From Lineus longissimus (lineage: Eukaryota > Nemertea > Pilidiophora > Heteronemertea > Lineidae), in NCBI RefSeq assembly GCF_910592395.1, contig NC_088314.1, forward strand, positions 11,968,001-12,032,000: a stretch of 64,000 nucleotides of DNA. The letters are read 5' to 3'. Shown piece after piece: positions 16,551 to 59,100 of the stretch. The notes below the pieces were generated by a model. That model was not told where the DNA came from. It did not search any database and was given only the letters and a program-made list of their open reading frames with translations. A program made the position numbers and the translations under genes. The number at the start of each line of letters is the position of its first letter. The first letter of the stretch is position 1.

Positions 16551-18409
16551 CTTTATCCTTAAAATAAATAAATATATACACACTTCAGTTAATGGAATTG
16601 CAATTAACTTTGAACACATTTTAAACATTGCAAACCCGTCCAATTTTAACATCCGGTCTCATGACAGAAGCTACCCATTCCCCAAATCTTTGAGGAACAC
16701 TCTTGTTCCTTCCGCTTCGTCGGCCAACACCGGTGTCCTGTTCATGGACAATCGAAGATTTCTCTCCAGTATCTTTACCCAACTCTGAACTAGATTCATG
16801 ACCTACTTCAATATTTTCACGGGCATCTACTGCGCCAGCGTCCGTATCTACCCCTTGATTTTCCTCAATGATTTCCGGAGTAGTATCCTTGGATACTTCC
16901 CCCCTCCCTATAATGATGTCTCCTCCTGGAGACTCTTCTCCTGGAGTAACCTCCACCATTTCATTTATCTTCGGGAGCCAAGCTTTGAAATCACATCCCT
17001 TATAGGGCTTCAAACGGTCATAATGACAGACTATAGGACTAGCTTGAGGTGATTTCTGAAGTCTGTACACAACGTCGTCAATCTTTCCTACTACGAGAAA
17101 CGGACCTTTCCAGTGACACTGAAGTTTGGGACACACCCCTTTCTTTCGTGCAGGATTATATACCCAGACTACATCACCAACAGAATACGCGGATCCGAAT
17201 CTTTGTCTATCATAATATCGCTTCTGACGCTCAGAATTTTTCTTAGTTTCATTTCTCGCCATTTCATGAGCTACATGAATATTTTCTCTCAGGGTTTCTA
17301 CGTAATCAATAGGCTTTACTTGATCAGCATTGTCTTCGATAGGAAAACCTGTCACTAAGTCTAGAGGTAACTCAACCTCCCTTCCCAACATCATTTTGTT
17401 CGGCGTTTGACCAGTCGTGTCATGTCTGGTTGCCCGATAAGCCATCATAGCAAAGGGAAGGCACTCTTGCCAGTCTTCTTGGCGCCTAATCGTCTTTGCT
17501 AAGATAGCCTCTATGGTCTGATTCATTCGTTCGCATTGTGAATTAGATTGAGGTCGCATCGGACTTGTCCTAGTTTTCTCTATTTCAAGCATTTCACAGA
17601 CTGCCCGAAATAACTTAGACTCATAGGACGCACCTCGGTCACTGTGAAGTTGTCTAGCACAACCGAATCTGCACAAAAACTCTCTAACAATTTTATTTGC
17701 AATAGTCTCCATTTCTTGATTAGGGATAGGATAGGCCTCAGCCCACTTAGTCCAGCTGTCCGTCACTAAGAGGATAAAACGGTTACCGTCACCCTTACTA
17801 GGAGGTAAAGGTCCTAGAACATCTGTACTAATCCGCTCTAATGTGTTTCCCACCCGATACTGTTTCAATTCAGCACGTCTTTTCTTACCCGGTCTCTTTC
17901 TCTGAGCGCAAATATCACACTGTTCAACCCAAGTGATAATATCCCTACTCATACCAGGCCACCAAAACCTTTGTTGTGCGAGAGGCAAAACTCGTTTTGC
18001 ACCGAAATGCCCTGCGGTTTTAGAAGAATGCAGATCACGGAAAATATCTCGGCGGTATTCGTTGGGTGGAATCATTTTCCAAACGTAAGTTTTCCCGTCG
18101 ACAGATTCCCAGTTTAATCCTAATACACCTGCTTGGAACTTTAACCTATCCCATTTGGCCCAATATGCCTTAGACAAAGCGTTTTGACTGGAAACATTTT
18201 TCCAATCCGGCCTCTCATTTAAGTTCTTTTTGGCATTTAGTATCCAAGTCAACTCTTGGTCTTCAGATTGTTTCTGAGCTAACATTGTCGGGGTCCACTT
18301 GTCAGTATCTTGGCTAAATTGCACTGTTTTGCATTTCTGATAAGATCTGGAGGAGTGTTCTTTAACACTATTCGCCTCAATTTCGTGAACTGCGTCTCCT
18401 TTCAATCTG

Positions 18410-19281
18410 GTAGTGTCACTCAGACACCCTACGTCACTACATAGTTCAGATGATGTGCATGACTGATCCAGGGAGAAACTGTCTTTACCGTTTTTCGTCT
18501 CCGTTGGCAAAGCCATTACGTCACCTACGTCACTATTGTCAATATCTTTTGACAGAGCGGTGTCACTTTGACACCTGCGTCTCTCAGTCTCATCTTCGTA
18601 TCGTGACATGCATGACTGATCCAAGGGGAAATGGTCTTTACCACTCTTCATCACCTTCGGAGAAGCCATGACGTCACCTACATCACTATTGTCAATATCT
18701 TTTGAGAAAGTCGTGTCACTTTGACACCTGCGTCTCTCAGTCTCATCTTCGTGTAGTGACATGCATGACTGATCCAAGGGGAAATGGTCTTTACCACTCT
18801 TCATCACCTTCGGAGAAGCCATGACGTCACCTACGTCATCAACATCAACATCTTTTTGGAGAGTAGCGTCACTTTGACACTTTTGTCTCTCAGTCTTAAC
18901 CTCATGTTGTGACATGCATGACTGATCCAGGGAGAAATGGTCTTTACCATTTTTCGTCTCCGTTGGCAAAGCCATGACGTCACCTACGTCATCAACATCA
19001 ACATCTTTTGTGAGAGTAGTGTCACTTTGACACCTTTGTCTCTCAGTCTTAACCTCATGTTGTGACATGCATGACTGATCCAGGGAGAAATGGTCTTTAC
19101 CATTTTTCGTCTCCGTTGGCAAAGCCATGAAGTCACCTACGTCATCGACATCAACATCTTTTGTGAGAGTAGTGTCACTTTGACACCTTTTTCTCTCAGT
19201 CTTAACTTCCTGTTGTGACATGCATGACTGATCCAGGGAGAAATGGTCTTTACCATTTTTCGTCTCCGTTGGCAAAGCCAT
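18410..19281 (-). repeat. 153-bp tandem repeat coding a 51-residue unit inside pol
   Basis: Between RNase H and integrase, five full units and one partial unit start at MALPTETKNG or MASPKVMKSG and continue through GKDHFSLDQSC, a TER-RCQSDTT segment and an acidic DVDVDDVGD end. All stay in frame. Units 1-3 form one subtype and units 4-5 a second (MASPKVMKSG, DIDNSDVGD). The partial sixth reverts to the first subtype, so the expansion involved more than one duplication step. The unit keeps two Cys. I know of no named domain like it. It could be a flexible linker or a protease cleavage region. Confidence 0.92.
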
Positions 19282-21668
19282 GACGTCACAACTTAAATCA
19301 GTCGTGTGGTCAATCTCCGTCACTTCTGTCAGCTCAACAACTCTATTAACCAGAATGTCCCCATCGTACCCCATTCTGTCACATTGTTTACAGTTTGTGC
19401 ACGGGATTCTACTTAGTCCGTCAGCGTTCCCATGAAGACGGCCTGCTCGGTGTTCAATTTTATAGTTGTAGGTTTCTAACACTTCCAACCACCTAGCCAC
19501 TTGACCCTCTGGTTCTTTGAAATTTTTAAGCCATGTGAGACTAGCATGATCAGTTCTGATCGTGAAAAATCTACCGTACAAGTAATGTTTGAAATGTTTC
19601 ACAAAATGTACTACGGCTAGGAGCTCCCTCCTGGTTGTACAATAGTTACGTTCAGTTTTAGACAATGACCGGCTACCATACGCAATAACCCTCTCGTGTC
19701 CATCCTAAATTTGGCTAAGGACGCCTCCTATACCAAATAGACTAGCATCTGTATCTAGTACCCATTCACCTTCTTCTCTAGGGTGTCCAAGAATTGGTGC
19801 AGACATCAGGCACCCTTTGAGAATGTCAAATGCCACTTCCTGTTCTTCACCCCATACCCATAATTCATCTTTCTGCGTTAATTTGTTTAACGGCCTAGCT
19901 ATGGTAGAGAACCCTCGTATGTACTTGCGATAATAGGCTAGTGTCCCCAAGAAACTACGCAACTCTGTCAAATCCTTTGGCCTCGGCCACTCTTTGACAA
20001 CTCTAACTTTTTCTGGATCACATGCTACTCCATTTTCGCTTACAACGTGTCCTAGAAAATGTACACTAAGTTGAAGGAGATTACATTTCTTAGGTTTCAA
20101 CTTTACATTGGCCTGTTCGAATCGTCCTAGCACAGTTCTCAAATTCTTTATTGCCTCATCAAAATCTCGTCCCCAGGTGATCACATCATCAAGATATACC
20201 AAGCAGACTTCAAATAACAAATTTGACATCATTTTGTTCATCATATAGGTGAAGGTCATCGGACTATTCACCATACCAAATGGCATAACTTTGAAGGAGT
20301 AAACATTGGTCCTATCTCGGAAACAAGAAATTTTGGATGCCCTTTCTGTAAGCTCTACTTGCCAGAATCCCGCCTGCGCGTCGAGTGCTGAAAAGTATTT
20401 GGCCCCAGCTAATGATGATAGTAAAGTTTCTTGATTAGCCATAGGTACAGCAGAAACCACAGTCTTTTTATTGACAAGTCGATAGTCCACACAGAAACGA
20501 TTTGTCCCGTCGCGCTTCTTTACTAGCGTAATGGCCGCTGCCCACGGACTATCAGGACATGGCACAATGATGTCATTCTCTAGCATTGATTTTATTTCTT
20601 TGTCAATTTCTTTTTGTTTCTCTATAGGGAATCTCCTTGGAGGTACCCTAATTGGTTTTGCATCACCAACGTCTATATCATGTTTGACAATTTTAGTCCT
20701 ACCCAGATCAGTCGGTGAAGTGGCGAATGCCCCCGAAAAATCGTTCAGACAACGTGCCAATTCATTACGTTGATAATCAGTTTCAAGATCCTTAGAACAT
20801 CTCTCATAGAGCTCCTTTAGGTGCTCAGGTATTTCTAAAATACCGGTATCGGTCTTCTCCGATTCTTTTACTAAATTAACAGCTTTGTTCGCAGGAGGTT
20901 TCGCATCCTCTCTTTCTACAATTTGAGTGCATGAATCTACGGGACACAATACTCCTAAGTACGTTCCCTTTCTTACTATTTGGGCCTGATCCCCGAAATT
21001 AGCAACCCTTATGGGGCACTCCCCATTTCTTGAGTCCACCAAAGTTTTCCCTAGTACACAAAATTCTGGAAGTCTCGTCTTCCTTGTAGGTTCAGCCACA
21101 GCCCAACCACCAGATGCGCGCTCTAGTGGCTTAGCAGGGACTCCACTCAACAACACTTGGTGACCTGCCGGTAATGTAACAGTAGACGTAGCAAATATTT
21201 TACAACATCTCAACTTAGGCGCTCTATTAATTCGACATAGCACCTCAGACTTCCCACACCATAAGACACCTCTACGCGCATCAATGGTACAACCCAGCTG
21301 TCCAAGAAAATCTAAGCCTAATATTCCATCTCAAGGGACATCAGCAATGATAACTGACCCTTCGGTCAATATATCGTCTGTCAATTCTATCACCATTTCA
21401 CCTTGTCCCAATACTTTTAAAGCAGACCCCTCAACACCTTCGAGGACAGGCACCTCTGTACCTAATCTTGGCCTCATTTCTTTTTTAATAGACTGAAATT
21501 TCTCTCTGGAGAGTATGGTGACACATGATCCTGTGTCTATCAAAAATTCAACATGTTCTCCACAAATTTTACTTGGCACATACAACCCCGAGTTGTTTTT
21601 CCCAATATTGACTTTAATAGGTGTACCATTGACGACGTCGGTCTTATGATGTGAGGCTTCCGTCTCCT

Positions 21669-22913
21669 TTACAACTGAGAAGCACCCCCCTTTCCCAGTT
21701 GATTCCCGTTTCCCTGATCGGTCCTATAGTTACCGTTATCGCGCCAATTATTCCTTGCCGTATTGTCTCTTCCTCCCTGCGCCTCATTTTGACTATGTGG
21801 ACAACGGCTGCTAAAATGACCAAATTCATTACATGTCCAGCACTGGATGTCCTTCAACGGTTTCTTAGGCCTACGCATGTTGCCACCAGCCTCATTGCCA
21901 GCGTAACCAGGTTGCGCACCTATTTGAAATGATTCAAGGAGTTTCGTCAGGTTTGTTATATTGCCACTCACTGATGCCAAACCCTCTTCTAGGCCCTTAA
22001 GTCTAGACTCAAATTTCTCCTGGTCTCCTCCTTTTTTACTACTAGCACTTACATGTTTGATTGCGCCCTGACTCTTGTCATTGTTTTGAAATTTCTGACG
22101 GTCATCTCTAGTAGTTGTGGCTTTCAAAGATCTAGGTAATGTCTCAACATTTCCACTTGATGACGTTTCATCAAGGTCCTCAGCCCTCACCATTTTACAG
22201 ACCCCTTTAGGTCTTGGTAGACCACCGTTATTTCTACGCGACTCAATTTTTTGGAAATTTTCCATTTCTAAAGCCACCGTAATGGCTTGTTCAAGCGTGT
22301 CCGGAGCTGCCTGAAAAAGTCTGACTCTCACGTCAGAATCATCTATAGCGTCAACGAAATGTTGCCGCGCCATACGCTCAGTCCACTGTAGGCCTAGACC
22401 TGGATATGCTAAAGAGCAGAGACGTCTTATATCCTGCCCCAATTCATGTAAACTTTCATTTTTGTGGCGTCTTCTATAACGAAGTTCAGCGGTGTATAGC
22501 TCGGTTCGATTGGCTGGGCCAAAGCGTTTCTCCAAAGCCCTAGAGAGTTTCTTGAAATTTGTACGGTCCCGCCTGGGGAGATCTGCCATTACTTGTAAGG
22601 CCGGCCCGCGGAGACACACCCCCATGCCTTGAGCCTTATCTTCATCATCCCATCCATTCAGATCCGAAACCATCTCAAAATGTGCCATGAAATCAACCCA
22701 ACTGGTAGACCCATTATAACATTGAGGAACTACTTCCCGCTTAGTACGACGCACTCGTGCGTGTGGGGCTCTGGCCTGGTCTCCACCAGCCAAGCGAAAA
22801 TTAGGCGAATTATCCCTTGAGGACTCATCCTCTGTGGTGGACGTATCATTACCATCACCTCGCCCATTTCTTCCCTCGTTCATAATAATCACCTCGTGAT
22901 CAGAGTCTGACAT
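21669..22913 (-). CDS. gag: Ty3-B gag
   Basis: An intact frame of 414 residues from ATG 22913. The first 50 residues are acidic and Ser/Asp/Asn-rich. A capsid region follows with CYNGSTSWVDFMAHFE, LRGPALQVMADLP, ALEKRFGP and HELGQDIRRLCSLAYP, typical of the Ty3 capsid. A CCHC zinc knuckle, CWTCNEFGHFSSRCPH, lies near residue 360. The tail is Gly/Asn/Arg-rich. The stop at 21669-21671 is 13 bases past a slippery run, and pol continues in the -1 frame. Confidence 0.95.
   Translation of the reverse strand: MSDSDHEVIIMNEGRNGRGDGNDTSTTEDESSRDNSPNFRLAGGDQARAPHARVRRTKREVVPQCYNGSTSWVDFMAHFEMVSDLNGWDDEDKAQGMGVCLRGPALQVMADLPRRDRTNFKKLSRALEKRFGPANRTELYTAELRYRRRHKNESLHELGQDIRRLCSLAYPGLGLQWTERMARQHFVDAIDDSDVRVRLFQAAPDTLEQAITVALEMENFQKIESRRNNGGLPRPKGVCKMVRAEDLDETSSSGNVETLPRSLKATTTRDDRQKFQNNDKSQGAIKHVSASSKKGGDQEKFESRLKGLEEGLASVSGNITNLTKLLESFQIGAQPGYAGNEAGGNMRRPKKPLKDIQCWTCNEFGHFSSRCPHSQNEAQGGRDNTARNNWRDNGNYRTDQGNGNQLGKGGASQL
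21684..21693 (-). promoter_or_regulatory. -1 frameshift slippery run at the gag/pol junction
   Basis: On the minus strand the run is AAAGGGGGGT. In the gag frame it presents A-AAG-GGG and G-GGG-GGT, both of the X-XXY-YYZ type, 13 bases before the gag stop. Shifting back by one base enters the pol frame, which is open there without a stop. I did not identify the stem-loop or pseudoknot that usually lies just downstream. Confidence 0.6.
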
Positions 22914-23192
22914 TACTAATTAGTCTGATATGCTTCACACTAAACGAATCTAAGGCCTAAACCTTTATCTACGGCTACTTTGATGATTTTAGTCGCACAC
23001 GACTAAATCTAAACAGTAAACTCAGTGAACCAGTACTACTTCCGAACTCTAAAGTTCAGTCATAATAATCACCAACAAAATTGTGTCCGTTGAAGTCTCA
23101 ATAGGTTCACTCATTTTTACTTCAATTTCAAATGATGCGTCTCTTATTTTCATTGATTGAATTGCTCTTTGAGTTTGATATTACAAAATTAT

Positions 23193-28048: not shown

Positions 28049-29045
28049 AATTCTTGAATGACAGTATCCATGGAACTCGGCTGGAGCCAGTGATCAGCGA
28101 TACAGCGTGATGAGATGGTTTTCAACTGTGATCTGAAGTCTCCAGCATTTGCAGTTCTGAACACTTCCTCCCGAATTTTGCCATAGCTGTAAATGTTCGA
28201 CAATAACCTCAGGAATCAAATAGTACCTCTTTTTGGTCTCATCAATTTTATTGTTTGGTATATGCCAGTTGCAGAAAAGGGTCTTTTCCATCCGAGAAAC
28301 TAGACCAAAATCAATTATAATGGGCCGAATATTCTGCAGGTTGGCAAGATCAACAAGTCTATTGTTGCTCTTAAGGTCCGTATGAAGCCACCCCGCTTTG
28401 TGAACTGATTGCAACGCATCGGCAATCTGAAGCACAATAACCTTAAGATAATCATTGGATAGGGTTTGTGGTCTTAATGCATCAGACAGTGTCACAGCCT
28501 GCTGAACAGTTTGACTTCCAATAAATTCAGTCACAACACAGGGGGCTTCTCCGTTTCTGACCAGCATACCAACAGGAAACAAAACACAAGGGTGTGAAAT
28601 AGACTGCAGGACACGGAGCTCTTTCACCGCACAGTCTTCTTTCGTGTTTTGGCGATACTGCTTCACAGCTATGAACAGCTTATCACTTCCGAAGGTCATT
28701 CCAGCAAGGTAAGCTACACCATAAGAGCCTTTCCCCAGGAGCACTTTAGAACTGTCTTCATTTAGGATGTATTCAACGCAATCCTTGTGCAGAATGTTCA
28801 CAGCATGCGATCGATGCATACTTTCTACTTTTTTGTTCACTCGTGCAATTTTAAGAGCAATTCGAAGATTTTCCTTGTGATTGTTGGACACTTCCGATAT
28901 TTGTTTCAAGTTGGCTGCTGTTGCCGACAACGTCTTCACTTTTTCTTTACAGTTTTCTTTTTCATCAAGCGCACCCAATTTCTTCTTTTCTGCACATTCC
29001 TTTGACACTTTATTCCTTGACGCCCGTTTTCGGACATGTTAGACA
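28049..29045 (-). pseudogene. Protein-kinase-like gene with coiled-coil N-terminus
   Basis: The minus frame from about 29040 reads a Lys/Glu-rich helical N-terminus (about 75 residues) and then a kinase domain: Gly-rich loop LGKGSYGVAY, the ATP lysine in IAVKQY, the alphaC Glu in AVKEL, the catalytic loop HTDLKSNN (HRD reads HTD), the DFG motif in IIIDFGLVS, and PEV where APE is expected. A 1-bp shift just after PEV (about 28165) moves the rest of the C-lobe into another frame, which reads IYSYGKI and ends at about 28049. No clean ATG exists in the main frame. An ATG in a neighbouring frame lies near 29038. The active-site residues are present. I do not recognise the subfamily. It is intronless and head to head with the RAG1-like gene, so it may be cargo, a retrocopy or an unrelated neighbour. 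Confidence 0.8.
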
Positions 29046-29762
29046 TGTCAGACATCATAGACTGAAGTGGAAAATAGTTCCTAGAAAACGTAAGTGTGTA
29101 AAGAATGAAGTGGTCCACAGAACATGTGTCCAGCAAACAGTCACATAAGACAGTAACAGAGTAAGACTGAGATATTGGATATCTCCATCGTACACTGAAG
29201 GAGTGTAACAGTGATGCCGACAGAACAATTTGACCTTGAAAAGTAGGTCAAATCAATAAATCAGCGCATATTTAATTTTTTCGGTTTTACAGAATTTTAT
29301 TATCACTGACTGAAGTCAGTGACAACATGGTAAACGAATACTTGTGATCGTCATAAATGGCAAGATGTTTCCTACACATATACTAAATGGGAGTTGCAGC
29401 GGTCGCAGATCTGATGGCGAACTAAACACGATGGTTTCATACTAACAACTGAATCATATCTTTATTCTCCCACAAATGTGGCATAAGCAAGGTATATGTT
29501 ACAGACAACAAAGTCAACTCCGATCGTGGGAAAGTGCTGGTCTCGAGCTACCCATGTTAGCTCCATGATTGGCAACAGATGCAGCTTCTGGGAAGGAAGC
29601 CCTAGGTTATGCAACAATATGTAATATCTGACACTCCCGGCTGAGCGAGAACTAGGTTTGTTTACTTCAAGTAAGCTGGTTGATTGACCTTAAGTTTCCG
29701 GAAATAAGTTCCAGTGAAATTTAGTTGGCATGAGCAATGAGACTTTTCCTTCTTTCTTACAG
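29046..29762. other. Divergent intergenic region between kinase-like and RAG1-like genes
   Basis: About 700 bp. It contains the near-perfect palindrome CACTGACTGAAGTCAGTG (29303-29320) and a GACCTTGAAAAGTAGGTCAA piece (29232-29251) that matches the internal unit of the 1.13-kb repeats at 49880 and 52715. A CACGATG word is at about 29427. It ends in a splice-acceptor-like tract. If both genes were transcribed, their promoters would lie here or upstream of an unseen first exon. None can be placed. Confidence 0.4.
29744..29762 (+). promoter_or_regulatory. Probable 3' splice site before the RAG1-like coding exon
   Basis: A pyrimidine tract ending CTTCTTTCTTACAG is followed at 29763 by AATATGG, where the RAG1-like frame starts. 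This is a good acceptor consensus. It suggests an upstream non-coding or short coding exon that I could not find. Confidence 0.55.
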
Positions 29763-32238
29763 AATATGGACCAGTATCACAAGCAAGTCCTCCAGCAGAT
29801 ATGTCATCTCTGTTCTGGTGATCTCAAGAAAGTCAAAAGACAGAACACTTTCTTTGATGTTTCAAAAGCAGCAGATGTCTTTCAGTTACACTACAGTATC
29901 TCTGTCGGCAACGAGTCGGAAGCTGTCTTCCCGCGCTGTATATGCAACAAGTGTCGTAACAAGGTTGATCGCCTAAAACAGTCTGCGGTTTCTAAGAATC
30001 TGACCGCCCCTAACTTTTTGCCACACCAGGATTGTGATTGCTTTTGCATAGGAAGAGGCTCAGTCCTTAAGTTACCTTTACCCAGTAAGCCATTGCAAAT
30101 TGAACCCTCAGAGGTGGTCATTTCTAGTGATCATTCCTATTTTGGATCTGGCCCAAATGCATGAGGGAACATCTAATGGTGGTACCACTACTGACACTGT
30201 TCTGTCTCCTCAGCAGCGAAAAAATGTCCACTGAAGCAGGTTTCACGTCATCACATAAAACAGCGACGTCTCAAAGACTTGATATCATCAGTTCATTCAT
30301 TTTGTGATGACAGGAAGGAAGATCCGATTGATGCAATTTATTCTGTTCTCATCCAAAAACTTCTTGATGTTGGGAGAAAAAAGGAAGCAGACAAAATTTT
30401 GTCAACGTGGACAACCAAGGGGAGGAGCTGGAAATGTCTGCCCTGGAATGTCTTGCAATGCGTGTTCAGACATTGCTATCAAAGACGCGTTGAAGGCAAC
30501 AATATAGTTTACAGCGTGACAATACCACCTCAGCATCTTTGAAACCGCCCTATCAGCTAGATGCTGTTGAACCTACATTTATGCCAGGGCACTGTGCGTT
30601 CAAGTTAATTAAAGCTCTGAGGTCATCGCGGAACAATCTATCTCTACCAATTGCCAGTATGAGCCACAGGACATCATGGCTCAATTCAAAAAACTTTCCA
30701 TCTGACTTTCCACTGCCCAATCTGGCTGGGGTGGAATTTAGTTTCATTTCTGCTATCGCAAAAACTTTATGGGAATGGGACAATTCAATCGAGATGCGCC
30801 TCAGAGAACTAGGATTACCACTTTCAACACCAATAGAGACATTATTCAAGGATGGTGGTGATGTAGCCATAAAAACACAGAAGGCAGAAGTGGCTAGAAC
30901 TGTCAAGGTTTTTAGGTACTCCTTCTGTTGTGTTTCATGTAGTGCTGTTGTTGGGGATGAGAAGCATCTTCTGTTTCGAGAAGATTTTCCAAACTCAGTT
31001 GATAATACTAGGCCTGTCATTCTCTGTCATTGTGATGAGAGTGACAGGCCCAGTATTTCAACTTTGCTGGGCAATGTATCTGGAGAAAGAGAGATGATGC
31101 AAGATGGCACCTTGTTGCTGGTGGATCCTGATACAGATGATGACGTATGACAGCATCACCTGCATTTCCTGTATACCATGGTTGATGAAAAATACGAGCG
31201 TACATCATCAGGGCTTAAGGGCAGTGGTTCAAGATATCTTTGCACTCTCTGTTATGCTGCAACTAACGCTGATGTTGGTTCCTTCTCCAGATGTAGAACT
31301 TATGATGAGACAGTTTCCCTGTACAAGTATCGCCTTGAAAACCCTGAGAAACTAAATGAAAATGATCTGGCTGAGAGATGCAAGGGGGTCAATAGCGTAC
31401 CTCTGATTAAATCAGATGCCACAGACAGATCACTTGATTCAACTCATGCCAATATCAATATTGGCAGGGTTTTCAAGAAGATACTTGTCAGGGAAGTAGC
31501 AGAGATCTATCACTTGGCTGAGAATGATGGAAACAAAAAACGCCTGCAACATGCTGAAAAAACCTTAGACCAATCTTTGATGAAAGAACTGGGCTTGCAG
31601 TCGAAGATGATCATGCCAGGCAATTATGCCCGCATTCTGTTCTTAGAAAAGAACGCTGAGACAGTGAGTGGGTTGATAAAAGACCCAAAGAGAAAGCAAC
31701 ATTTCAAAACCATTCTAGGTTTATTCAGCAAGTTGAAGGCAGTATATTCTAGCAATAATCCCTCTGTCAGTGCCAGAAGAAACTGACTCGTACAAGGAGA
31801 ATGCACTGCAATTTGCATTTCATTTGGGGGAGCATTTCAACTATGTGCCATGGTCTATTATCTTCACAAGTTGATTGAACATGTGGATGAAATAGTCAAG
31901 GACCCAAGAGATCTCCATAATGTAGGGATGCTCTCTAGTGAAGGTGGCGAATGTGGGAATAAGTTGTACAGGTGCATTCGCAAGTGCCTCAGTAGACAGG
32001 ACACTGCTGGTGACCGTGATTTGAGAGATGCCCTGGTTTTCCATTGGATTTATACCAGTAAATCAAGTCAGAAACTAGCAAGTTCTCAAAATAATCCTTA
32101 TTACAGTGGAAATGTGGACAGGTTTGTCACAACAGTCGTACTTGTGATGAAAATGGGCAAACTAGTACTCTTCACCAGAGCATGGACACTAGTGTTGACT
32201 TGGAGATGGACATGGACATGGACACTTTGTCTGAGTAA
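29763..32238 (+). pseudogene. RAG1L: RAG1-like recombinase/transposase (RAG1L), broken
   Basis: RAG1-like proteins are DDE-type endonucleases that cut at terminal repeats with their RAG2-like partner. The frame starts at ATG 29766. Residues 1-60 hold a Cys-rich zinc domain (CHLCSG ... FPRCICNKC) equivalent to the RAG1 zinc-binding dimerisation region. The core follows in pieces (30539-31150, 31178-31786, 31850-32120), with FKDGGDVA, CHCDESDRP (first catalytic Asp at 31034), DEKYERTSSGLKGSGSRYLC with LCTLC, THANINIG, GNYARIL, LHKLIEHV, SSEGGECGNKLYR (catalytic Glu at 31940) and HWIYTSKSSQKL. The C-terminus is acidic. At THAN (31451) the second catalytic Asp reads Asn. Breaks include frameshifts near 30160, 30230, 30400-30540, 31770, 31848 and 32125, and TGA at 31148. 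It faces RAG2L tail to tail. Confidence 0.95.
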
Positions 32239-32604
32239 TGGAATTACTACATGCAGAATCTTAACTTCTGTGTGGTCCACAAAACAAACTTCAAATGAAA
32301 TCTGATTTACCTTTGATTGATTTATTCATCCATGTTTTACCACCAATGCAATGTCTTAACTATTTGTTTTACTAAATATTGTTTATTACTTATTTTACTA
32401 CCATTGATTATTTAAAGTTTATAAAATAGGGGCCAGTGCCATCCATGTATGATGAATTAACTAGTATTGATTGATACCCTGGCCCTGTGTTGCACAGTAG
32501 TGCTGCCCTGCAAACAATGCAGCAAATTCTTATACAGACTGAAAGCCCATTTTCATTTTCAATAGGCCTACTGCATTGCACAAATTACATAAATTATTTA
32601 CCAC
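32239..32604. other. Convergent spacer between RAG1L and RAG2L
   Basis: About 366 bp of AT-rich DNA between the two stop codons. It should hold both 3' UTRs. AATAAA-type words on the minus strand (TTTATT on the plus strand at about 32319 and 32378) could serve RAG2L. I see no further gene. Confidence 0.45.
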
Positions 32605-33934
32605 TCAATTTTTGGCTTTGTTCTTTCTTTGTCTTTTACCTTTTGGTTTGCATTTAGGACATGTAAATCTGATGTCCTCCTGGCCCTGAGATTCACCATT
32701 TCCTCTCAGGTCAGTACAGCAAGAGTGGAAAAATGCATCACACAAGACACACTGAAGCTTTGTGACAATTTCTCCCGGAGAGAAATTATCATTTACGATG
32801 CATTTTTCCGCTTCACAAACACCAAGCTCCATTTGTTTGGTTGTCATTGTGAACAAATGTTCATTGGCTCCACCATGGAAAAACAGAGAGGATTGGTCTA
32901 GTCTCACAAAAGTGTGACTAGCCATAGCAAACCCGGTGGGAGCTTCCTTGGTTTGAATGCTGAGGGTAGTAATGTCCACAAGATAGTAAGAGTTGCTTGG
33001 AGTCTTTGTGTTCATATCAGAGGTATACTGTTGGTACCCCCCAAAAATCAATAGCTGATTTGGAGAGCAGATGTTTGCACTGTGCCCAGAGAGAAATACA
33101 TTATCCAGTGCAGGGTCAATGAAGGACAAGCTGAGATTTTACACAGTAACTTGGTCAACTGTTGGATTCAGTTCCACTGTGATTATCTTCTGGATGGACA
33201 TACGCTGTGTAGAAGTCACCCCATTTTCACATAGCTGAGACAGTCCCCCGGTGAAGACAATTGTATGGTCCTTGATTTCACAGCCTGTATGATATGCAAC
33301 TGGTACAAGTTCAGTCAACAGTTTCTTCCACTGATGATTTAAGTCTATAAAGTAGAGAGAGCCATCCTGCGTTGAATGTTCTTTGCCCTGGACTGTGTTC
33401 TTCACAGTGACTCCTCCATACAGAACAGCTCCAATAAGATTGTCATTGTAATGGAGACCAGTTAGTGTATGCCCATAACGTGCTTCAGGTACAGCCCCAG
33501 TTTGCACATTCTTAGTCCCTTCCTGGCAAACTAATGTAGCAGTGAATTGATCCCTTCCAAAGTTCTCAAGAATTGTCAGGTCATTATGTGGTGACATACG
33601 ATGTTGATCAAGACCGCCCCAAATTGAGCAAACCGGTCTCATGGCACTCCTCACTCCCCCAGAACCAGCACCAGTTCGTCTGGAGGAAACTTCACGTGTT
33701 GCCTTAGTTTCAACAATGCATGCAGAGTGCACAAATGGCCTCAGAGCTATCTGTGCACCTGAACACTTGCACTCTGCCACAGACAATATCTTAATGTCAT
33801 CGTTGGTCACTTTAAAAGCATAATTGTAAATAGTCGCGGATAAATTTGTGAGTGGTTTCAGTGAATGCATTCCACCGAGCACGGCAACTGAGAATTTTTT
33901 TTTCTTCTTGCTGCTGCTGGGGATCGTAGCTCAT
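32605..33934 (-). pseudogene. RAG2L: RAG2-like protein with kelch propeller and PHD finger (RAG2L), broken
   Basis: RAG2-like proteins are cofactors of RAG1-like transposases; in RAG2 the PHD finger binds methylated histone H3. One minus frame runs from about 33900 to 32605, interrupted by TAA at 33139-33141. Kelch-type blades are visible: VPEARYGHTLTG, VLYGGVTV, AYHTGCEIKDHTIVFTGG, SGHSANICSPNQLLIFGG and SHTFVRLDQSSLFFHGG. The EARYGH motif is a hallmark of RAG2. A C4HC3 PHD finger follows (residues 105-160 of the downstream block: CEAEKC, CVLC, HSCC, CPKC), and the protein ends in a basic tail. A start at ATG 33934 joins this frame only through a 1-bp change in an A9 run, and the frame also continues upstream (see 33940-34119). 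Retention of the PHD finger is a useful family character. Confidence 0.93.
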
Positions 33935-33939
33935 GCTAT

Positions 33940-34119
33940 TCAGCCAAGATAAATGTCCGTGCTCTGAAAAAAGGGCTCCCTTGTTTGCCTCCGATCGCCT
34001 TCTTCCGTCACCTTTCTACGATTTAGAACTGCCTTTAGAACGGAATAAAAATGAGCATTGTTGAAGAATTCATCGCCAGATTCTCGATTCATTACATGCA
34101 ATACGCCCACATCCGCCAT
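33940..34119 (-). CDS. Small 59-codon frame, possible RAG2L N-terminal exon
   Basis: ATG 34119 lies in a good context (AACATGG) and opens a frame MADVGVLHVMNRESGDEFF that ends in TGA at 33940-33942. It is in the same frame as RAG2L, separated from it only by two TGA codons (33940 and about 33931), so it may be the true N-terminal region of RAG2L interrupted by nonsense changes, or an upstream exon. It has no recognised domain. The alternative is a small host or element gene. Confidence 0.4.
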   Translation of the reverse strand: MADVGVLHVMNRESGDEFFNNAHFYSVLKAVLNRRKVTEEGDRRQTREPFFQSTDIYLG

Positions 34120-35306
34120 GTTGTTTATCAGTTACCAGGTGCAACAATTGTACTGCGCATGCAGACATACTGAGAGAACCTGGCGGTGGCGGAAAAACTA
34201 ATCTGAAACGATGTGCGCATGCGTAGCTTAATACACAGGTGAGCTGTAGAGAACATTTCTGTGTGCAACAAGAAGATCTGCCAACAAGCTATTATTATTA
34301 AAGGGACTCTCTGTCAATAGAAAATCAATGTGCATCACAATCCTAACAAAGCTAGATTAGGTATCAAAGTTTGCACCGACATGCATTTGCCAAAATTCCT
34401 TTATGACCGAGCAAGCCCTGGCCTGGCAAGTTACATATTGTAGAATCGAATAGCATATTTACATGTATCCAATCAATAGGTCCTCAAGGAGCAAATAGGA
34501 ACTTTAGATAAATATAATATGCATAATTTTGACTACAAAATAAACTAATATAGTAACAGACATTTATAGCAATAGAAAGAGAAAGACATGGGAAAACCAA
34601 CTTACTGTGGCCCGGATAGGGGGAATTCAAGAATGACAAACTGCTTTCAACGTCTTATACGATTTAATAAGGTACTAACTCGTTTCTGGAAAGATACAAA
34701 TACAAGACTCATAAGTTATGAGTAAAAGATACATGAAAATGATGATACTAGTACTGTTTACCACAACTTGACCGTACGAAGTCGCCACCTGGCGTTATAC
34801 AACTGAACTAAACAGATTGGAAACATGCACAACTTTGTGCCCAAATAATGACTTAGTTATATAGAATTTACACATGAAATTACTTACACAACGTTGCGAG
34901 AACCCTCTCCTGCACTTATATTCGGGTTTTGATACAATATTTGATTGATTAAGGTTACAACAGAAGCAATCTTCGCAAGAAGATAGTTCAGAAAAATGGC
35001 TTCCGTGGGCGGAAGTTGGCTAAAAGCCACGAGAGACACGTGATGGCGAAAACCTCAAGAAGATAATAAAAAGGACCACAATACAGAGTGTCCCAAAGAA
35101 AATACAAGTTGATTTGTGACATACCCGCCCCCCCTGACAGAGTCCAAAAACTAGTCAAAAAAGTAAATCACGAAAATGGATTCACTGACACTGATTGAAA
35201 ACGAATTAATGAAACTATTGAACTGATTGAAAACGAATTAATGAAACTAAGTCTACCGGATACAGACACATCATAAACTGTCTGAACATAGAACATGTAG
35301 AACTGC
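34120..35306. other. Upstream flank of RAG2L, no feature recognised
   Basis: AT-rich DNA of about 1.2 kb. It contains a GCGCATGC word twice (about 34155 and 34216). The right terminal repeat of a RAG-type element would be expected in this range, but I could not find a heptamer-like CACNNTG terminus with an inverted partner on the left side. The fragments of open frame have no motif. Confidence 0.4.
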
Positions 35307-46855: not shown

Positions 46856-48660
46856 TAATGCTTGGCCGAGCCCTCTGTGGACCAACCAACATGCTACATC
46901 GCCGCTGAAATGCTGATCCCCGCGGCCTGGAGACCTACTGCACAACCACTCCTAAAACTGTGGGGTGTTTCCCCTTCATCTATTCCCAATGTAACTAAGT
47001 AATTTCGGAGCCTCCTGTAAATCACATCATACTGCAACGGAGCGTCAAGCACCCTACCACTAGCCATAGGCCTAAACAAGTAGCCCACTTTTAAGCAGAC
47101 CCCCAACTAGACCGCCACTCCCAGATAGCACTCCAATGCTCCGACCGGGCACATTAAATGATCTTTGCATCTTAAGATGGTAAATATGTTTGGTCTGTCA
47201 ACTCGATGAGTCTTACCCCACGTATGACGGATGACAAAGCCCAACTTGTCTGGCAATGATTTTACCTCCTGTGCGATCATCAGACCCACGTCATTTGCCC
47301 TATCACCCCCAAAAGCCATAAGCTTCATCAAAGCCTGGTCCCGTGCCAGAATAAATTTCAAAGAATCAACTACCCCCTCATCATGTAGCCGTCTATCAAT
47401 ATACTGCGCCATCAACTTTACCTTCGGCAAAAACAACAGCTTCGCCTGAACCGGCGCCACCCGAGCAATGCTCTGCTCATCCCTAACCTGACCCATGTAG
47501 ATGGACACTTCATTAGATGAGGCTGGATTTCCCGACCCTGCCAATCAGGCACCACGACGCCCCATACTCTCATACAAAGCCCTCAACTGGGACACCTTCA
47601 CCTTCACTGTACCAAACGCTAATCTTCTGGAACAAAGACAAAGCGGTTTTCTCACGCCAGTCTCCTTACAACTCCTGACATGGATCGCTGTCTCACCCTT
47701 TCCATCACACCATGCCAGAAACAAGCACACCTCATATGGAGAGCATGAAAATAAACTGCTCCCGATCTCAAACAGAAAACATTCTAACTGCACTGCCAAT
47801 CTCGATTTACTAATCTGGTAACTCTCACTACAATGGGCCTCCAATAACTGATCCACCCTACTCCTCAAACCAAACACATCCAGGTGGCCTACTGTTCTTG
47901 ACTGCAAGATAAAACGGACAGCATTAGACACTAAACTTTGTACGATGAACAAAAAACCAGACTCCTAGAGTTGACAGACCCTCGCTACCCATAGTTCACA
48001 TTTCAGATTAAAATCTGTAAAACCTGCCGAGGACGGAGACTCAAGTACCCCACTCTCCCCTACCATGCCCAACCTAGTAATTGATTTTGCATTGCGCTTG
48101 AGCATTGGCCACCAATATGGGGTCTTCCGTGCCTTTGGGACCACAATAGACACTCTTAAAGGCCTAGCGGAATTACTCTGCAGGAGAAAAGCCAAAACCG
48201 CCCCTACCATGCAAAATGGCGGGAAAACATAGTAGTTCTGAGAGTCCAAGCGCACCTTTGACAGAACATTGACTCCTGCTGACTGCGGCAGCGGCCAAGG
48301 AGTGTAATGAGGGAGCACCGTCCCATCTCTGTCTCTCATAACATTCGAATCTAGAGCCATTAGGTCGAAAGTATGCCGCAAATCTGACAAGGATATAGCC
48401 CGAGACGGGGCGTCAGCCGGATTCAGAGCCAAACGGACATACACCAATCTCAAATCACAATTCACTTTGGCCACCCACAGGAATATAGCCTTGATTATCT
48501 TAACCAACGCCAGATCCTTGCTACCTCGGTTCTCTCAAGATTTCATGAGAGCCTGGTTATCAACCCAAACCTCTACTCTCTTGTTGGCGATAATATCTGG
48601 GATTGCCTCTAATGTTTTTAGCTCAGCTGACAAAGTCAGCGGAGCTAGTCAAATAGCTAT
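46856..48660 (-). pseudogene. Ngaro-like retroelement: RNase H and tyrosine recombinase
   Basis: In minus-strand order from 48660: RNase H end (VEVWVDNQALMKS then a stop, DLRLVYVRLALNPADAPSR, the DAPSR motif of Ngaro/DIRS RNase H), a linker with PWPLPQSAGVNV, and an N-terminal core domain (47952-47545, helical). The tyrosine recombinase follows with KLMAFGGDRANDVG (Arg region), a basic KTHRVDRPN segment, GETPHSFRSGCA (His-x-x-Arg) and, after an in-frame TAG, HVGWSTEGSAKHYA with the nucleophilic Tyr at about 46861. The two in-frame TAG codons (47107 and about 46891) and a TGA in RNase H break it. The active-site set is otherwise visible. The RT is missing to the right of 48660. Confidence 0.82.
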
Positions 48661-49879: not shown

Positions 49880-50919
49880 ATGAAATGGCCAGGGCCATTG
49901 TGCTCACCTCATGTGGAGGAAAGATGGATAAAGAGCATGGTCTTGTGTCATGTAGTGTTAGGTTTGATGTAGGTCCAAGCAATTACAATTTCCCCAAAAT
50001 GGCCAATTTACAGTACATTCGACCTCTGTGACCTTGAAAAGTAGGTCAAATCAAAGAAGACCCGGGTGACACATTGAATGGTTGTTAGAATTAGATGTAC
50101 CTATGATATAAAATTGGTGCCAATCGGGCAAGTCATTACTAGGAATAATGGCATTTTGAAGAATTAAGGATTTGGCCCCCTCCCTGGAGGCCAAACGGCA
50201 AATCAGATCGCACCAAACTTCGGTACCTGAGATCACCTGACCAAGGGGTACATGTGTACTTAATTTGTGATCAATAGTCATTGCAGTTAAGAAACGTGCC
50301 ATAGTAACGGCCTGACGGCGAATTTAGGCCATTTGACCTCTGTGACCTTGACAAGAAGGTCAAATTAAAAACCTGTGTGACATATACTGTATGGTGGTTA
50401 GATGTACCCATGATATCAAATTGGTGGCAATCGGGCAAGAAGTTAAGGAATAATCACATTTTTAAGGTTTTTGGATTTTGCCCCCTGGTGGTCAAGTGGT
50501 GAATCATATTGGACCAAACTTTGGTCCCTGAGATCACCTGACTAAGGGGTAAATGTGTACCAAATTTGGTATCAATAGTCATTGCAGTTTAGAAACGTGC
50601 CATCATTACATCCTAACGGCTAATTTACACCATTTGACCTCTGTGACCTTGAAAAGGAGGTCAAATCAAAAACCCGGAGGATATATGATGCACCTTTGCT
50701 AGAAGTACCTACCATATTTTTTTCAAAATTTCCTGACTACTATTAAGGGAGATATTGCATATTTTCACTTTTAACGTTTGGCCCCCTGGTGGCCAAACCA
50801 TGAAACGAATCGGACCGAAAACTTGGTCTCCCAGGTGTCATTACATAAGGGTACATGTGTACCAAGTTTCAACTCAATAGCTCCAACAGTTACGAAACGT
50901 GCCCTGCTAACGGACGACG

Positions 50920-52714: not shown

Positions 52715-53754
52715 AATGAAATGGCCAGGGCCATTGTGCTCACCTCATGTGGAGGAAAGATGGATAAAGAGCATGGTATTGTGTCATGTAGTGTTAGGTT
52801 TGATGTAGGTCCAAGCAATTACAATTTCCCCAAAATGGCCAATTTGCAGTACATTCGACCTCTGTGACCTTGAAAAGTAGGTCAAATCAAAGAAGACCCG
52901 GGTGACACATTGCATGGTTGTTAGAATTAGATGTACCTATGATATAAAATTGGTGCCAATCGGGCAAGTCATTACTAGGAATAATGGCATTTTGAAGAAT
53001 TTAGGATTTGGCCCCCTCCCTGGAGGCCAAACGGCAAATCAGATCGCACCAAACTTCGGTACCTGAGATCACCTGACCAAGGGGTACATGTGTACTTAAT
53101 TTGTGATCAATAGTCATTGCAGTTAAGAAACGTGCCATAGTTACGGCCTGACGGCGAATTTATGCCATTTGACCTCTGTGACCTTGACAAGAAGGTCAAA
53201 TTAAAAACCTGTGTGACATATACTGTATGGTGGTTAGATGTACCCATGATATCAAATTGGTGGCAATCGGGCAAGAAGTTAAGGAATAATCACATTTTTA
53301 AGGTTTTTAGATTTTGCCCCCTGGTGGTCAAGTGGTGAATCATATTGGACCAAACTTTGGTCCCTGAGATCACCTGACTAAGGGGTAAATGTGTACTAAA
53401 TTTGGTATCAATAGTCATTGCAGTTTAGAAACGTGCCATCGTTACATCCTAACGGCCAATTTACACCATTTGACCTCTGTGACCTTGAAAAGGAGGTCAA
53501 ATCAAAAACCCGGAGGATATATGATGCACCTTTGCTAGAAGTACCTACCATATTTTTTTCAAAATTTCCCAACTACTATTAAGAGAGATATTGCATATTT
53601 TCACTTTTAACGTTTGGCCCCCTGGTGGCCAAACCATGAAACGAATCGGACCGAAACTTGGTCTCCAAGGTGTCATTACATAAGGGTACATGTGTACCAA
53701 GTTTCAACTCAACAGCTCTAACAGTTACGAAACGTGCCCTGCTAACGGACGACG

Positions 53755-56109: not shown

Positions 56110-59100
56110 GATCCTTACAAACACTCTCATCATTATTATTATCATTATTATCATCCCTATTACATTTATTTGTTTTCTTTTCCTTTATTCGTATATATGG
56201 TTACGTATTATAAACGCCTATTATACTTTTGCTTAGCCGTAATAATTAGTTATATGGTTTCATTCACTCCGTCAAACCTTGAGTTTTATCGATAGGCATA
56301 TTGTGATTTCATTTATTCCTAGTATCCGCATTATTACCGATTAAGTACAGTAATATATTGATACAATTACCCTCTCATCATTATTATCGTCACTATCACT
56401 TGTTATCTTTTCCTTATTCGTATATATGGTTACGTATTATAAACGCCTATTATACTTTTGCTTAGTCGTAATATTTAGCAATATGGTTTCATTCACTAGA
56501 GTTTTATCGATAGGCATATTGTGATGTTATTGATTCCAAGTACTCATTATTACTGATTAGTACAGTAATATATTGATACAATTACACTCTCATCATTATT
56601 ATCGTCACTATCACTTGTTATCTTTTCCTTATTCGTATATATGGTTACGTATTATAAACGCCTATTATACTTTCGCTTAGTCGTAATATTTAGCAATATG
56701 GTTTCATTCACTAGAGTTTTATCGATAAGCATATTGTGATGTTATTTATTCCTAGTATCCTCATTATTACCGACTAATTACAGTAATATATATTATCGTC
56801 ACTATTATATGTTTTCTTTTCCTTTATGCGTATATATGGTTACGTATTATAAACGCCTATTATACTTTCACTTATTCGTAATATTTAGCTATATGGTTTG
56901 ATTCACTAGAGTTTTATCGATAAGCATATTGTGATGTTATTTATTCCTAGTATCCTCATTATTACCGACTAAGTACAGTAATATATATTATCGTCACTAT
57001 TATACTTTTGCTTAGTCGTTATATTTAGCTATATGGTTTCATTCACTAAAGTTTTATCGATAGGCATATTGTGATGTTATTGATTCCAAGTACTCATTAT
57101 TACCGATTAGTACAGTAATATATTGATACAATTACACTCTCATCATTATTATCGTCACTATCACTTGTTATCTTTTCCTTATTCATATATATGGTTATGT
57201 ATTATAAACGCCTATAATAATTTCGCTTAGTCGTAATATTTAGTTATATGGTTTCATTCGCTCCGTCAAACCTTGAGTTTTATCGATAGGCATATTGTGA
57301 TTTCAATTATTCCTAGTATTCTCATTATTACCGATTAAGTACAGTAATATATTGATACAATTACACTCTCATCATTATTATTGTCACTATCACTTGTTAT
57401 CTTTTCCTTATTCGTATATATGGTTACGTATTATAAACGCCTATTATACTTTCGCTTAGTCGTAATATTAGCTATATGGTTTCATTCACTAGAGTTTTAT
57501 CGATAGGCATATTGTGATGTTATTGATTCCAAGTACTCATTATTACCGATTAGTACAGTAATATATTGATACAATTACACTCTCATCATTATTATCGTCA
57601 CTATCACTTGTTATCTTTTCCTTATTCGTATATATGGTTACGTATTATAAACGCCTATTATACTTTTGCTTAGCCGTAATAATTAGTTATATGGTTTCAT
57701 TCACTCCGTCAAACCTTGAGTTTTATCGATAGGCATATTGTGATTTCATTTATTCCTAGTATCCGCATTATTACCGATTAAGTATAGTAATATATTGATA
57801 CAATTACACTCTCATCATTATTATCGTCACTATCACTTGTTATCTTTTCCTTATTCGTATATATGGTTACGTCTATTATACTTTCGCTTAGTCGTAATAT
57901 TTAGCAATATGGTTTCATTCACTAGAGTTTTATCGATAAGCATATTGTGATGTTATTTATTCCTAGTATCCTCATTATTACCGACTAATTACAGTAATAT
58001 ATATTATCGTCACTATTATATGTTTTCTTTTCCTTTATGCGTATATATGGTTACGTATTATAAACGCCTATTATACTTTCACTTATGCGTAATATTTAGC
58101 TATATGGTTTCATTCACTAGAGTTTTATCGATAAGCATATTGTGATGTTATTTATTCCTAGTATCCTCATTATTACCGACTAAGTACAGTAATATATATT
58201 ATCGTCACTATTATACTTTTGCTTAGTCGTAATATTTAGCTATATGGTTTCATTCACTAGAGTTTTTTCGATAGGCATATTGTGATGTTATCGATTCCAA
58301 GTACTCATTATTACCGATTAGTACAGTAATATATTGATACAATTACACTCTCATCATTATTATCGTCACTATCACTTGTTATCTTTTCCTTATTCATATA
58401 TATGGTTATGTATTATAAACGCCTATAATAATTTCGCTTAGTCGTAATATTTAGTTATATGGTTTCATTCGCTCCGTCAAACCTTGAGTTTTATCGATAG
58501 GCATATTGTGATTTCAATTATTCCTAGTATTCTCATTATCACCGATTAAGTACAGTAATATATTGATACAATTACACTCTCATCATTATTATTGTCACTA
58601 TCACTTGTTATCTTTTCCTTATTCGTATATATGGTTACGTATTATAAACGCCTATTATACTTTCGCTTAGTCGTAATATTAGCTATATGGTTTCATTCAC
58701 TAGAGTTTTATCGATAGGCATATTGTGATGTTATTGATTCCAAGTACTCATTATTACCGATTAGTACAGTAATATATTGATACAATTACACTCTCCTCAT
58801 TATTATCGTCACTATCACTTGTTATATTTTCCTTATTCGTATATAAGGTTACGTATTATAAACGCCTATTGTGCTTTTGCTTAGCCGTAATAATTACTTA
58901 TATGGTTTCATTCACTCCGTCAAACCTTGAGTTTTATCGATAGGCATATTGTGATTTCATTTATTCCTAGTATCCTCATTATTACCGATTAAGTACAGTA
59001 ATATATTGATACAATTACACTCTCATCATTATTATCGTCACTATCACTTGTTATCTTTTCCTTATTCGTATATATGGTTACGTATTATAAACGCCTATTA

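What the first reader, a model, noticed from the sequence alone, without database searches (positions are those of the whole stretch)
29763..33934. Tail-to-tail RAG1-like and RAG2-like gene pair (fossil ProtoRAG-type transposon)
The sequence shows a RAG1-type core and zinc N-terminus on one strand and a kelch-plus-PHD RAG2-type protein on the other, 366 bp apart and convergent. Established knowledge: this is the arrangement of the ProtoRAG transposon of amphioxus and related RAG-like elements of other invertebrates, the ancestors of V(D)J recombination machinery. That the pair is a transposon rather than a domesticated locus is an inference from its position in a transposon-rich region and its decay.
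Basis: partly seen in the sequence, partly recalled or inferred. Interest (0 to 1): 0.97.

Follow-up and report, generated by a model that had tools for sequence, protein, structure and literature searches.

The report
Dead RAG-like jumping gene pair
A ribbon-worm chromosome carries the decayed remains of a mobile element whose two genes are relatives of RAG1 and RAG2, the enzymes that cut and shuffle antibody genes in vertebrates; it adds a new host and some anatomy to a known family and is not a new kind of system.

Summary
RAG1-like (+, 29766-32238) and RAG2-like (-, about 34128-32605) remnants lie tail to tail; best solved-structure matches are amphioxus RAG1L (1.1e-36) and RAG2L (1.5e-11). 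Both genes are broken. A second broken copy lies on chromosome 16, 96.4% identical over 4,531 aligned bases. Homology stops sharply at window 29706 and about 34265 and the adjoining flanks are unrelated, so the unit moved as an element. Both copies end on the right in 5'-CACACMGAAATGTTC: CAC start and AAA at positions 8-10, as in published protostome RAGL ends. No left terminal repeat or target-site duplication was found. Between copies dN/dS is 0.87 (0.58-1.49) overall (RAG1L 1.29, RAG2L 0.45): mostly neutral decay, not a domesticated locus. The closest relatives are two open-framed metagenome proteins (54% and 49% identity; the RAG1L one ends early) sharing the lack of a RING domain and a RAG2L N-terminal extension. 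This branch is only 33-35% identical to seven other invertebrate RAG1L; it may be nemertean RAGL_D, whose sequences I could not compare. Verdict: fossil RAGL transposon, new member of a known kind.

The parts
29706..34265 (.). Whole repeated unit (RAGL element remnant), about 4.56 kb
   Evidence: Blastn homology with C16:11364839-11370365 runs 29706-34268 in two pieces and stops at both ends; adjoining 400-bp flanks score like random pairs
29766..32238 (+). RAG1-like gene remnant: zinc-motif N-terminus, no RING (ZDD), NBD to CTD core, remnant of CTT* zinc motif; broken by frameshifts and stops
   Evidence: PF12940, 6b40_A, P0001 54%, frame lesions; start codon read
30494..32095 (+). RAG1 core region with residues aligned to mouse D708 and H795 (and E962, number recalled); a four-residue gap overlaps the D600 site
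   Evidence: Alignments; C16 counterpart
32605..34128 (-). RAG2-like gene remnant: N-terminal extension (about 34128-33890), kelch propeller, PHD finger (about 32817-32650); broken by frameshifts and a TAA
   Evidence: 6b40_M, P0005 49%, tblastn P0005 34128-32611, lesions, PHD read
34226..34265 (-). Right terminal sequence (putative 3' TIR), read on the minus strand CACACAGAAATGTTCTCTACAG...
   Evidence: Lies at the homology drop in both copies; CAC start and AAA at 8-10; 12 of 17 positions of the published protostome consensus
29700..29765 (+). Left end of homology, with a splice-acceptor-like TTCTTTCTTACAG before the first ATG; no TIR recognised

Best explanation
The locus is a dead copy of a RAG-like (RAGL) cut-and-paste DNA transposon in the ribbon worm Lineus longissimus. 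When intact it would have coded a RAG1L transposase (RNase-H-type DDE active site) and a RAG2L kelch/PHD partner transcribed towards each other; together they would bind CAC-ended terminal repeats, cut by nick and hairpin, and insert elsewhere (mechanism inferred from RAG/ProtoRAG, not shown here). One copy came to lie on chromosome 7 and another on chromosome 16. Since they parted, the copies have decayed with little or no selection on their proteins. Shown: homology, arrangement, breakage, two copies at unrelated sites, right-hand terminus. Inferred: past activity, mechanism, host name.
For: RAG1/RAG2-like homology. Convergent pair. Second copy on C16 at 96.4% identity over 4,531 aligned bases, K2P 0.037, with unrelated adjoining flanks. 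Right end with CAC start and AAA at positions 8-10 in both copies; such a pair of motifs occurs at 45 of 127,966 window positions, both strands. Residues aligned to mouse D708 and H795 kept; V at the position aligned to E649 and I at that aligned to R848, the states that PMC7204232 reports for most protostome RAG1L and links to transposition-prone enzymes. PHD C/H spacing C-x4-C-x16-C-x2-C-x4-H-x2-C-x18-C-x2-C fits the published invertebrate pattern (counted by hand; pattern). Combined dN/dS 0.87 (0.58-1.49); substitutions by codon position RAG1L 31/680, 20/677, 20/679 and RAG2L 12/422, 12/423, 12/423. Host: the eight contigs whose lengths I saw (C2, C4, C7, C10, C14, C15, C16, C17) lie within about 0.01 Mb of chromosomes 2, 4, 7, 10, 14, 15, 16 and 17 of L. 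longissimus.
Against: No left TIR and no target-site duplication found. A 276-base search for the right end found 2 of 2 candidates, the two copies themselves, so nothing further supports the terminus; short derivatives sharing only the outer repeat would be missed, and the pattern search for them did not complete. RAG2L alone gives dN/dS 0.45 (0.24-0.98), a hint of some constraint in the history of the two copies. In the window copy a four-residue gap overlaps the D600 site, and the alignment can keep or lose that aspartate; the C16 copy has it. One stop (at P0001 residue 234) is present in both copies, TGA here and TAA on C16, so the progenitor may already have been defective and moved by an enzyme supplied in trans.
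Confidence: 0.9

Rival explanations
1. A domesticated RAGL gene pair kept by the host for its own use, as proposed for sea urchins, that has only lately been lost.
For: RAG2L dN/dS is under 1 (0.45, 0.24-0.98); invertebrate RAGL genes without TIRs are suspected to be domesticated (PMC9885083, passages).
Against: Frameshifts in both genes of both copies, stops in three of the four; RAG1L dN/dS 1.29 (0.75-3.09); two copies at unrelated sites with clean homology limits.
Confidence: 0.03
2. The unit reached its two sites by some other route, such as capture in a larger mobile element or a duplication by repair, and not by its own transposition.
For: No left TIR and no TSD; shared stop in both copies.
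Against: The right limit is the same in both copies within the alignment and has the CAC...AAA form of RAGL ends; no homology adjoins the unit on either side. Dispersed 301-bp repeats occur some kilobases away at both loci, but not next to the unit.
Confidence: 0.07
3. A gene pair with real but sequencing-broken frames (assembly errors), still active.
For: Some frame breaks lie in runs of one base, for example the one near 33892 beside a long T run of the + strand.
Against: In-frame stops, the four-residue gap at the D600 site, and the 0.95-kb insertion in the C16 copy are not base-run errors; the paper reports 79-fold long-read and 107-fold read-cloud coverage (PMC8593623, passages).
Confidence: 0.03

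Closest known systems
P0001/P0005, JGI metagenome proteins, each on one contig of 5,999 bp (probably the same contig; inference)
   Same: RAG1L 54% and RAG2L 49% identity; N-terminal zinc motifs, no RING hit, RAG2L N-terminal extension, PHD
   Different: Open frames of 705 and 540 residues, though P0001 ends before the region of the third catalytic residue; host unknown; its DNA could not be fetched
RAGL_D (and RAGL_B) transposons of the ribbon worm Notospermus geniculatus, same family Lineidae (PMC7204232, Results read; taxonomy)
   Same: Host family; convergent pair; RING (ZDD) absent; PHD present; CAC-ended termini reported there
   Different: There at least six intact protein pairs, and elements with TIRs and TSDs, are reported; here only broken copies were found. 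Direct sequence comparison was not possible
ProtoRAG of amphioxus (Branchiostoma belcheri)
   Same: Convergent RAG1L/RAG2L; best solved-structure match of both
   Different: RAG1L 33% identical; amphioxus RAG2L lacks PHD; ProtoRAG RAG1L has a RING and the element has both TIRs (PMC7204232)
Vertebrate RAG1-RAG2
   Same: Active-site residues D708 and H795 and gene arrangement
   Different: 26% identity to mouse RAG1 core; no acidic stretch between propeller and PHD (read); transposase-like residues at the E649 and R848 positions

Membership tests
RAGL transposon | RAG1-like core | tested here: met
   PF12940 185 bits read through; 6b40_A 1.1e-36
RAGL transposon | RNase-H-type DDE residues | tested here: inconclusive
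   D708 and H795 aligned; E962-equivalent in SSEGGECGNK (mouse number recalled); D600 site overlaps a four-residue gap in the window copy, present on C16
RAGL transposon | Adjacent RAG2-like kelch protein in tail-to-tail orientation | tested here: met
   6b40_M 1.5e-11; P0005 1.9e-127; Pfam RAG2 in the window under cut-off; fold not confirmed (model too poor)
RAGL transposon | RAG2L PHD with the invertebrate C/H spacing | tested here: met
   Spacing counted against the pattern in PMC7204232; Pfam PHD sub-threshold in the window
RAGL transposon | CTT* zinc motif Cx2Cx3GHx4C at the RAG1L C-terminus | tested here: inconclusive
   Only a frame-shifted remnant CGQVCHNSRTC at 32113-32145
RAGL transposon | Terminal inverted repeats beginning CAC at both ends | tested here: inconclusive
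   Right end met in both copies; left end not found
RAGL transposon | 5-bp target-site duplication | tested here: inconclusive
   None convincing with the two right-end readings tried over 9.8 kb (window) and 7.9 kb (C16) upstream
RAGL transposon | Copies at unrelated genomic sites | tested here: met
   Two copies, C7 and C16
ProtoRAG in the strict sense (amphioxus element) | RAG2L without PHD, RAG1L with RING | tested here: not met
   PHD present; no RING between the zinc motifs and the NBD; P0002 shows RING hits in the same scan, P0001 does not
RAGL_B | RAG1L falls within the RAGL_B clade | tested here: inconclusive
   Window plus P0001 form a clade (100/99) apart from seven other invertebrate rows, but the split of those seven has only 76/88 support, and without the window row the place of P0001 is unresolved; that those rows are RAGL_B is my inference
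RAGL_D | Monophyly with N. geniculatus RAGL_D RAG1L | not testable with these tools
Domesticated RAGL gene | Intact frames under purifying selection | tested here: not met
   Broken in both copies; dN/dS 0.87 overall, RAG2L alone 0.45

The most novel reading that the evidence does not exclude
The window element, the C10 relic and the metagenome pair P0001/P0005 form a RAGL family apart from A-D, marked by loss of the RING domain and an N-terminal extension on RAG2L of about 80 residues not seen in amphioxus RAG2L, with unequal ends of which only the right one keeps the RSS-like CAC form.
Probability: 0.2. Interest if true: 0.62.

Novelty: new member of a known kind. Interest (0 to 1): 0.45.

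Why it matters
RAGL transposons are widely held to be the source of V(D)J recombination. A pair of dead copies in a chromosome-level nemertean genome indicates that the element moved and died in this lineage, gives a second lineid host to set beside N. geniculatus, and, with the metagenome pair, gives a divergent RAGL branch whose RAG2L extension and termini can be used to test how RAG2 was acquired and how RAGL families split. It is an addition to a known picture, not a change of it.

Tried and rejected
Left TIR: scans with the published consensus (21 matches in the window against 19.4 expected), with the right end's own sequence, and with CAC plus near-TSD gave no convincing left end. At the C16 left limit the stretch TACAAACTTC fits ten positions of the published consensus in a row, but without its CACT start (11 of 17 in all) and not so in the window copy; I do not claim it. 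A weak similarity between the two ends (score 19) was not tested against shuffles and is not used.

Structure: AlphaFold of P0005 from two sequences gave mean pLDDT 41.5; not used, no fold search made. Viral and prokaryote contig scans with A3 found no relative: 242 and 71 pattern stretches, 0 confirmed; neither collection is one of animal genomes.

Protein searches: one search scored only the 8,000 candidates sharing most words and gave 4 hits; one search gave 1; one search gave 4, of which P0001 was already known.

Domestication and misassembly were weighed and rejected as told in rivals. The tree with mouse RAG1 has a long branch beside the window clade; without mouse the window clade stays (100/100), without the window P0001 is not placed.

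Papers: PMC7204232 abstract, Results whole, Methods part 1 of 2 and passages; PMC9435367 whole text; PMC8593623 passages; PMC9885083 passages; others search listings only. Searches for print on this locus: 'Lineus longissimus' with 'RAG1' (0 papers), nemertea+RAG1+RAG2+transposon since 2021 (1), RAGL_D names (2, of which 1 relevant). A later paper on RAGL families that I recall was not in the listings (0 papers).
Full report
OBSERVATION. On the + strand three successive open stretches of one frame match Pfam RAG1 (PF12940; 6e-10, 1.4e-25, 3.8e-13), and 30494-32239 read through its stops scores 185 bits. The best solved-structure match of 31151-31783 is amphioxus RAG1L 6b40_A, 1.1e-36. On the minus strand 33139-33930 matches amphioxus RAG2L 6b40_M, 1.5e-11; Pfam RAG2 and PHD stay below cut-off in the window but pass it in the closest relative P0005 (24.5 and 24.2 bits). 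The pair is convergent with 366 bp between (32239-32604).

EXTENT. The extra part aligns with the N-terminal extension of P0005. P0005 starts its match to amphioxus RAG2L at residue 189 against residue 109 of that chain, so it is about 80 residues longer ahead of the propeller. RAG1L begins at the ATG at 29766, where the alignment to P0001 also starts. Between the N-terminal zinc motifs and the NBD there is no room for a RING, and P0001 has no RING hit either, while the hemichordate P0002 has.

HOST. The window lies in G000:C7:11968001-12032000 of a 391,118,348-base, 30-contig assembly. The lengths of the eight contigs that I saw fit chromosomes 2, 4, 7, 10, 14, 15, 16 and 17 of Lineus longissimus within about 0.01 Mb (PMC8593623, passages; for example C7 21.155 against 21.16, C16 16.534 against 16.53, C10 19.402 against 19.41). 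The paper gives 391 Mb in 32 scaffolds, two more than the 30 contigs here. The host name is my inference from this.

COPIES. In the own genome Pfam RAG1 gives 6 matches, 1 here and 5 on C16 between 11365392 and 11368190 (6 of 6 candidates scored). P0001 gives 8, 2 here and 6 on C16. P0005 gives 5: 1 here, 2 on C16 and 2 at C10:7175957-7176464. The C10 relic has no DNA similarity to the window element beyond short chance matches, and no RAG1L was seen in the 18 kb around it, so it belongs to another, probably older insertion (inference). The C16 copy matches window 29706-34268 in two pieces split by about 0.95 kb extra in C16. The extra piece has mirror termini CAAGGAGGATACCGCGGTGACGTCAC and a 9-bp duplication CCTATATAC (read by eye); the window holds an uninterrupted counterpart that differs at one base. 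Adjoining 400-bp flanks score 19 and 20, as random pairs do (median 19, 95% point 23, largest 44 in 300 draws), against 701 and 652 just inside. Farther out, a dispersed repeat of window 49.9-53.7 kb has relatives on both sides of the C16 copy.

ENDS. The right limit reads 5'-CACACAGAAATGTTC (window, outer base 34265) and 5'-CACACCGAAATGTTC (C16) on the minus strand. Protostome RAGL ends begin CAC with AAA at positions 8-10 (PMC7204232); 12 of 17 consensus positions fit, a score that 0.5% of all window positions reach. CAC with AAA at 8-10 occurs at 45 of 127,966 positions of the window, both strands. A 276-base search found this end only at the two copies; derivatives sharing just the outer repeat would escape it. 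No left TIR and no TSD were found.

DECAY. Against P0001 the window RAG1L shows five frame breaks and a stop, and one more break near 32108 against P0003; further in-frame stops lie at 30162, 30192 and 31148. RAG2L shows two breaks and a TAA. C16 RAG1L shows five breaks and two stops besides the insertion, one further break near local 11009 against P0003, and C16 RAG2L two breaks and no stop. One stop site is common to both copies. In the window copy a four-residue gap overlaps the D600 site, and the alignment can be placed so as to keep or lose that aspartate; the C16 copy has it. Between the copies: 164 substitutions in 4,531 columns (88 transitions, 76 transversions), K2P 0.037, 28 gaps. 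Nei-Gojobori dN/dS: RAG1L 1.29 (0.75-3.09; 673 codons), RAG2L 0.45 (0.24-0.98; 417 codons), both 0.87 (0.58-1.49; 1,090 codons). Codons near frame breaks and codons with gaps were left out, and 3 of 1,093 codon pairs holding a stop were dropped. RAG1L and the whole look neutral; RAG2L alone hints at some constraint.

RELATIVES. Three protein searches gave seven RAG1L (P0001-P0004, P0006-P0008) and one RAG2L (P0005). P0001 and P0005 are each known from one contig, 5,999 bp long, probably the same one. Window RAG1L is 54% identical to P0001, 33-35% to seven others (P. flava, Mercenaria, Pinctada, amphioxus, two ENA and one lgn sequence) and 26% to mouse; those seven are 40-82% identical to one another. 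The window-P0001 clade has 100/99 support. The split of the seven from window, P0001 and mouse has 76/88 support, and with the window left out P0001 is not placed. So it is a branch apart, perhaps RAGL_D of N. geniculatus, also Lineidae; that could not be tested.

MECHANISM. By analogy with RAG and ProtoRAG, a RAG1L-RAG2L complex would bind CAC-ended repeats, cut and reinsert. Kept residues: those aligned to D708 and H795 (mouse numbers worked out from chain offsets) and, by recalled number, E962; V at the E649 position and I at the R848 position, which PMC7204232 links to transposition-prone enzymes; invertebrate-type PHD spacing. None of this was tested by experiment. The shared stop suggests that the last move of at least one copy was made by an enzyme supplied in trans (inference).

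VERDICT. Fossil RAGL transposon; new member of a known kind; interest 0.45. No paper in the searches reports it, but the library lacks most subscription journals, and the broad survey PMC9435367 (173 species) lists its species in supplements that I could not open.

Noticed in passing
G000:C10:7175957-7176464 (L024 8957-9455): A RAG2L N-terminal relic with the same N-terminal extension, no DNA similarity to the window element and no RAG1L in the 18 kb examined: a separate RAGL insertion.
   Followed up: partly
C16:11366306-11367258 approx. (L009 9306 to L010 258): About 0.95-kb piece inside the C16 RAG1L with 26-bp mirror ends and a 9-bp duplication; a non-autonomous element, Mutator-like by duplication length (inference).
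   Followed up: partly
28097-29038 (-): Protein-kinase-like open frame just upstream of RAG1L (PF00069 5.5e-19); host gene or captured, not resolved.
   Followed up: no
16621-22919 (-): Ty3-type gag-pol with long open frames (RVT_1, RNase H, integrase) and a 153-bp internal repeat, 5.5 copies, inside the frame at 18456-19289.
   Followed up: no
50016-50796 and 52852-53704: 301-bp tandem repeats with an 810-bp relative (98%) about 7 kb upstream of the C16 RAGL copy and weaker ones downstream of it; probably a common dispersed repeat.
   Followed up: no
47548-47964 (-): Open frame with an ALOG domain hit (9.2e-11), as in some tyrosine recombinases of mobile elements (recalled).
   Followed up: no
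34606-34900: Dispersed repeat, 96-97% copies on C17 and C15, begins about 340 bp right of the RAGL end.
   Followed up: no
56281-63965: Long tandem arrays with units of about 140-443 bp.
   Followed up: no
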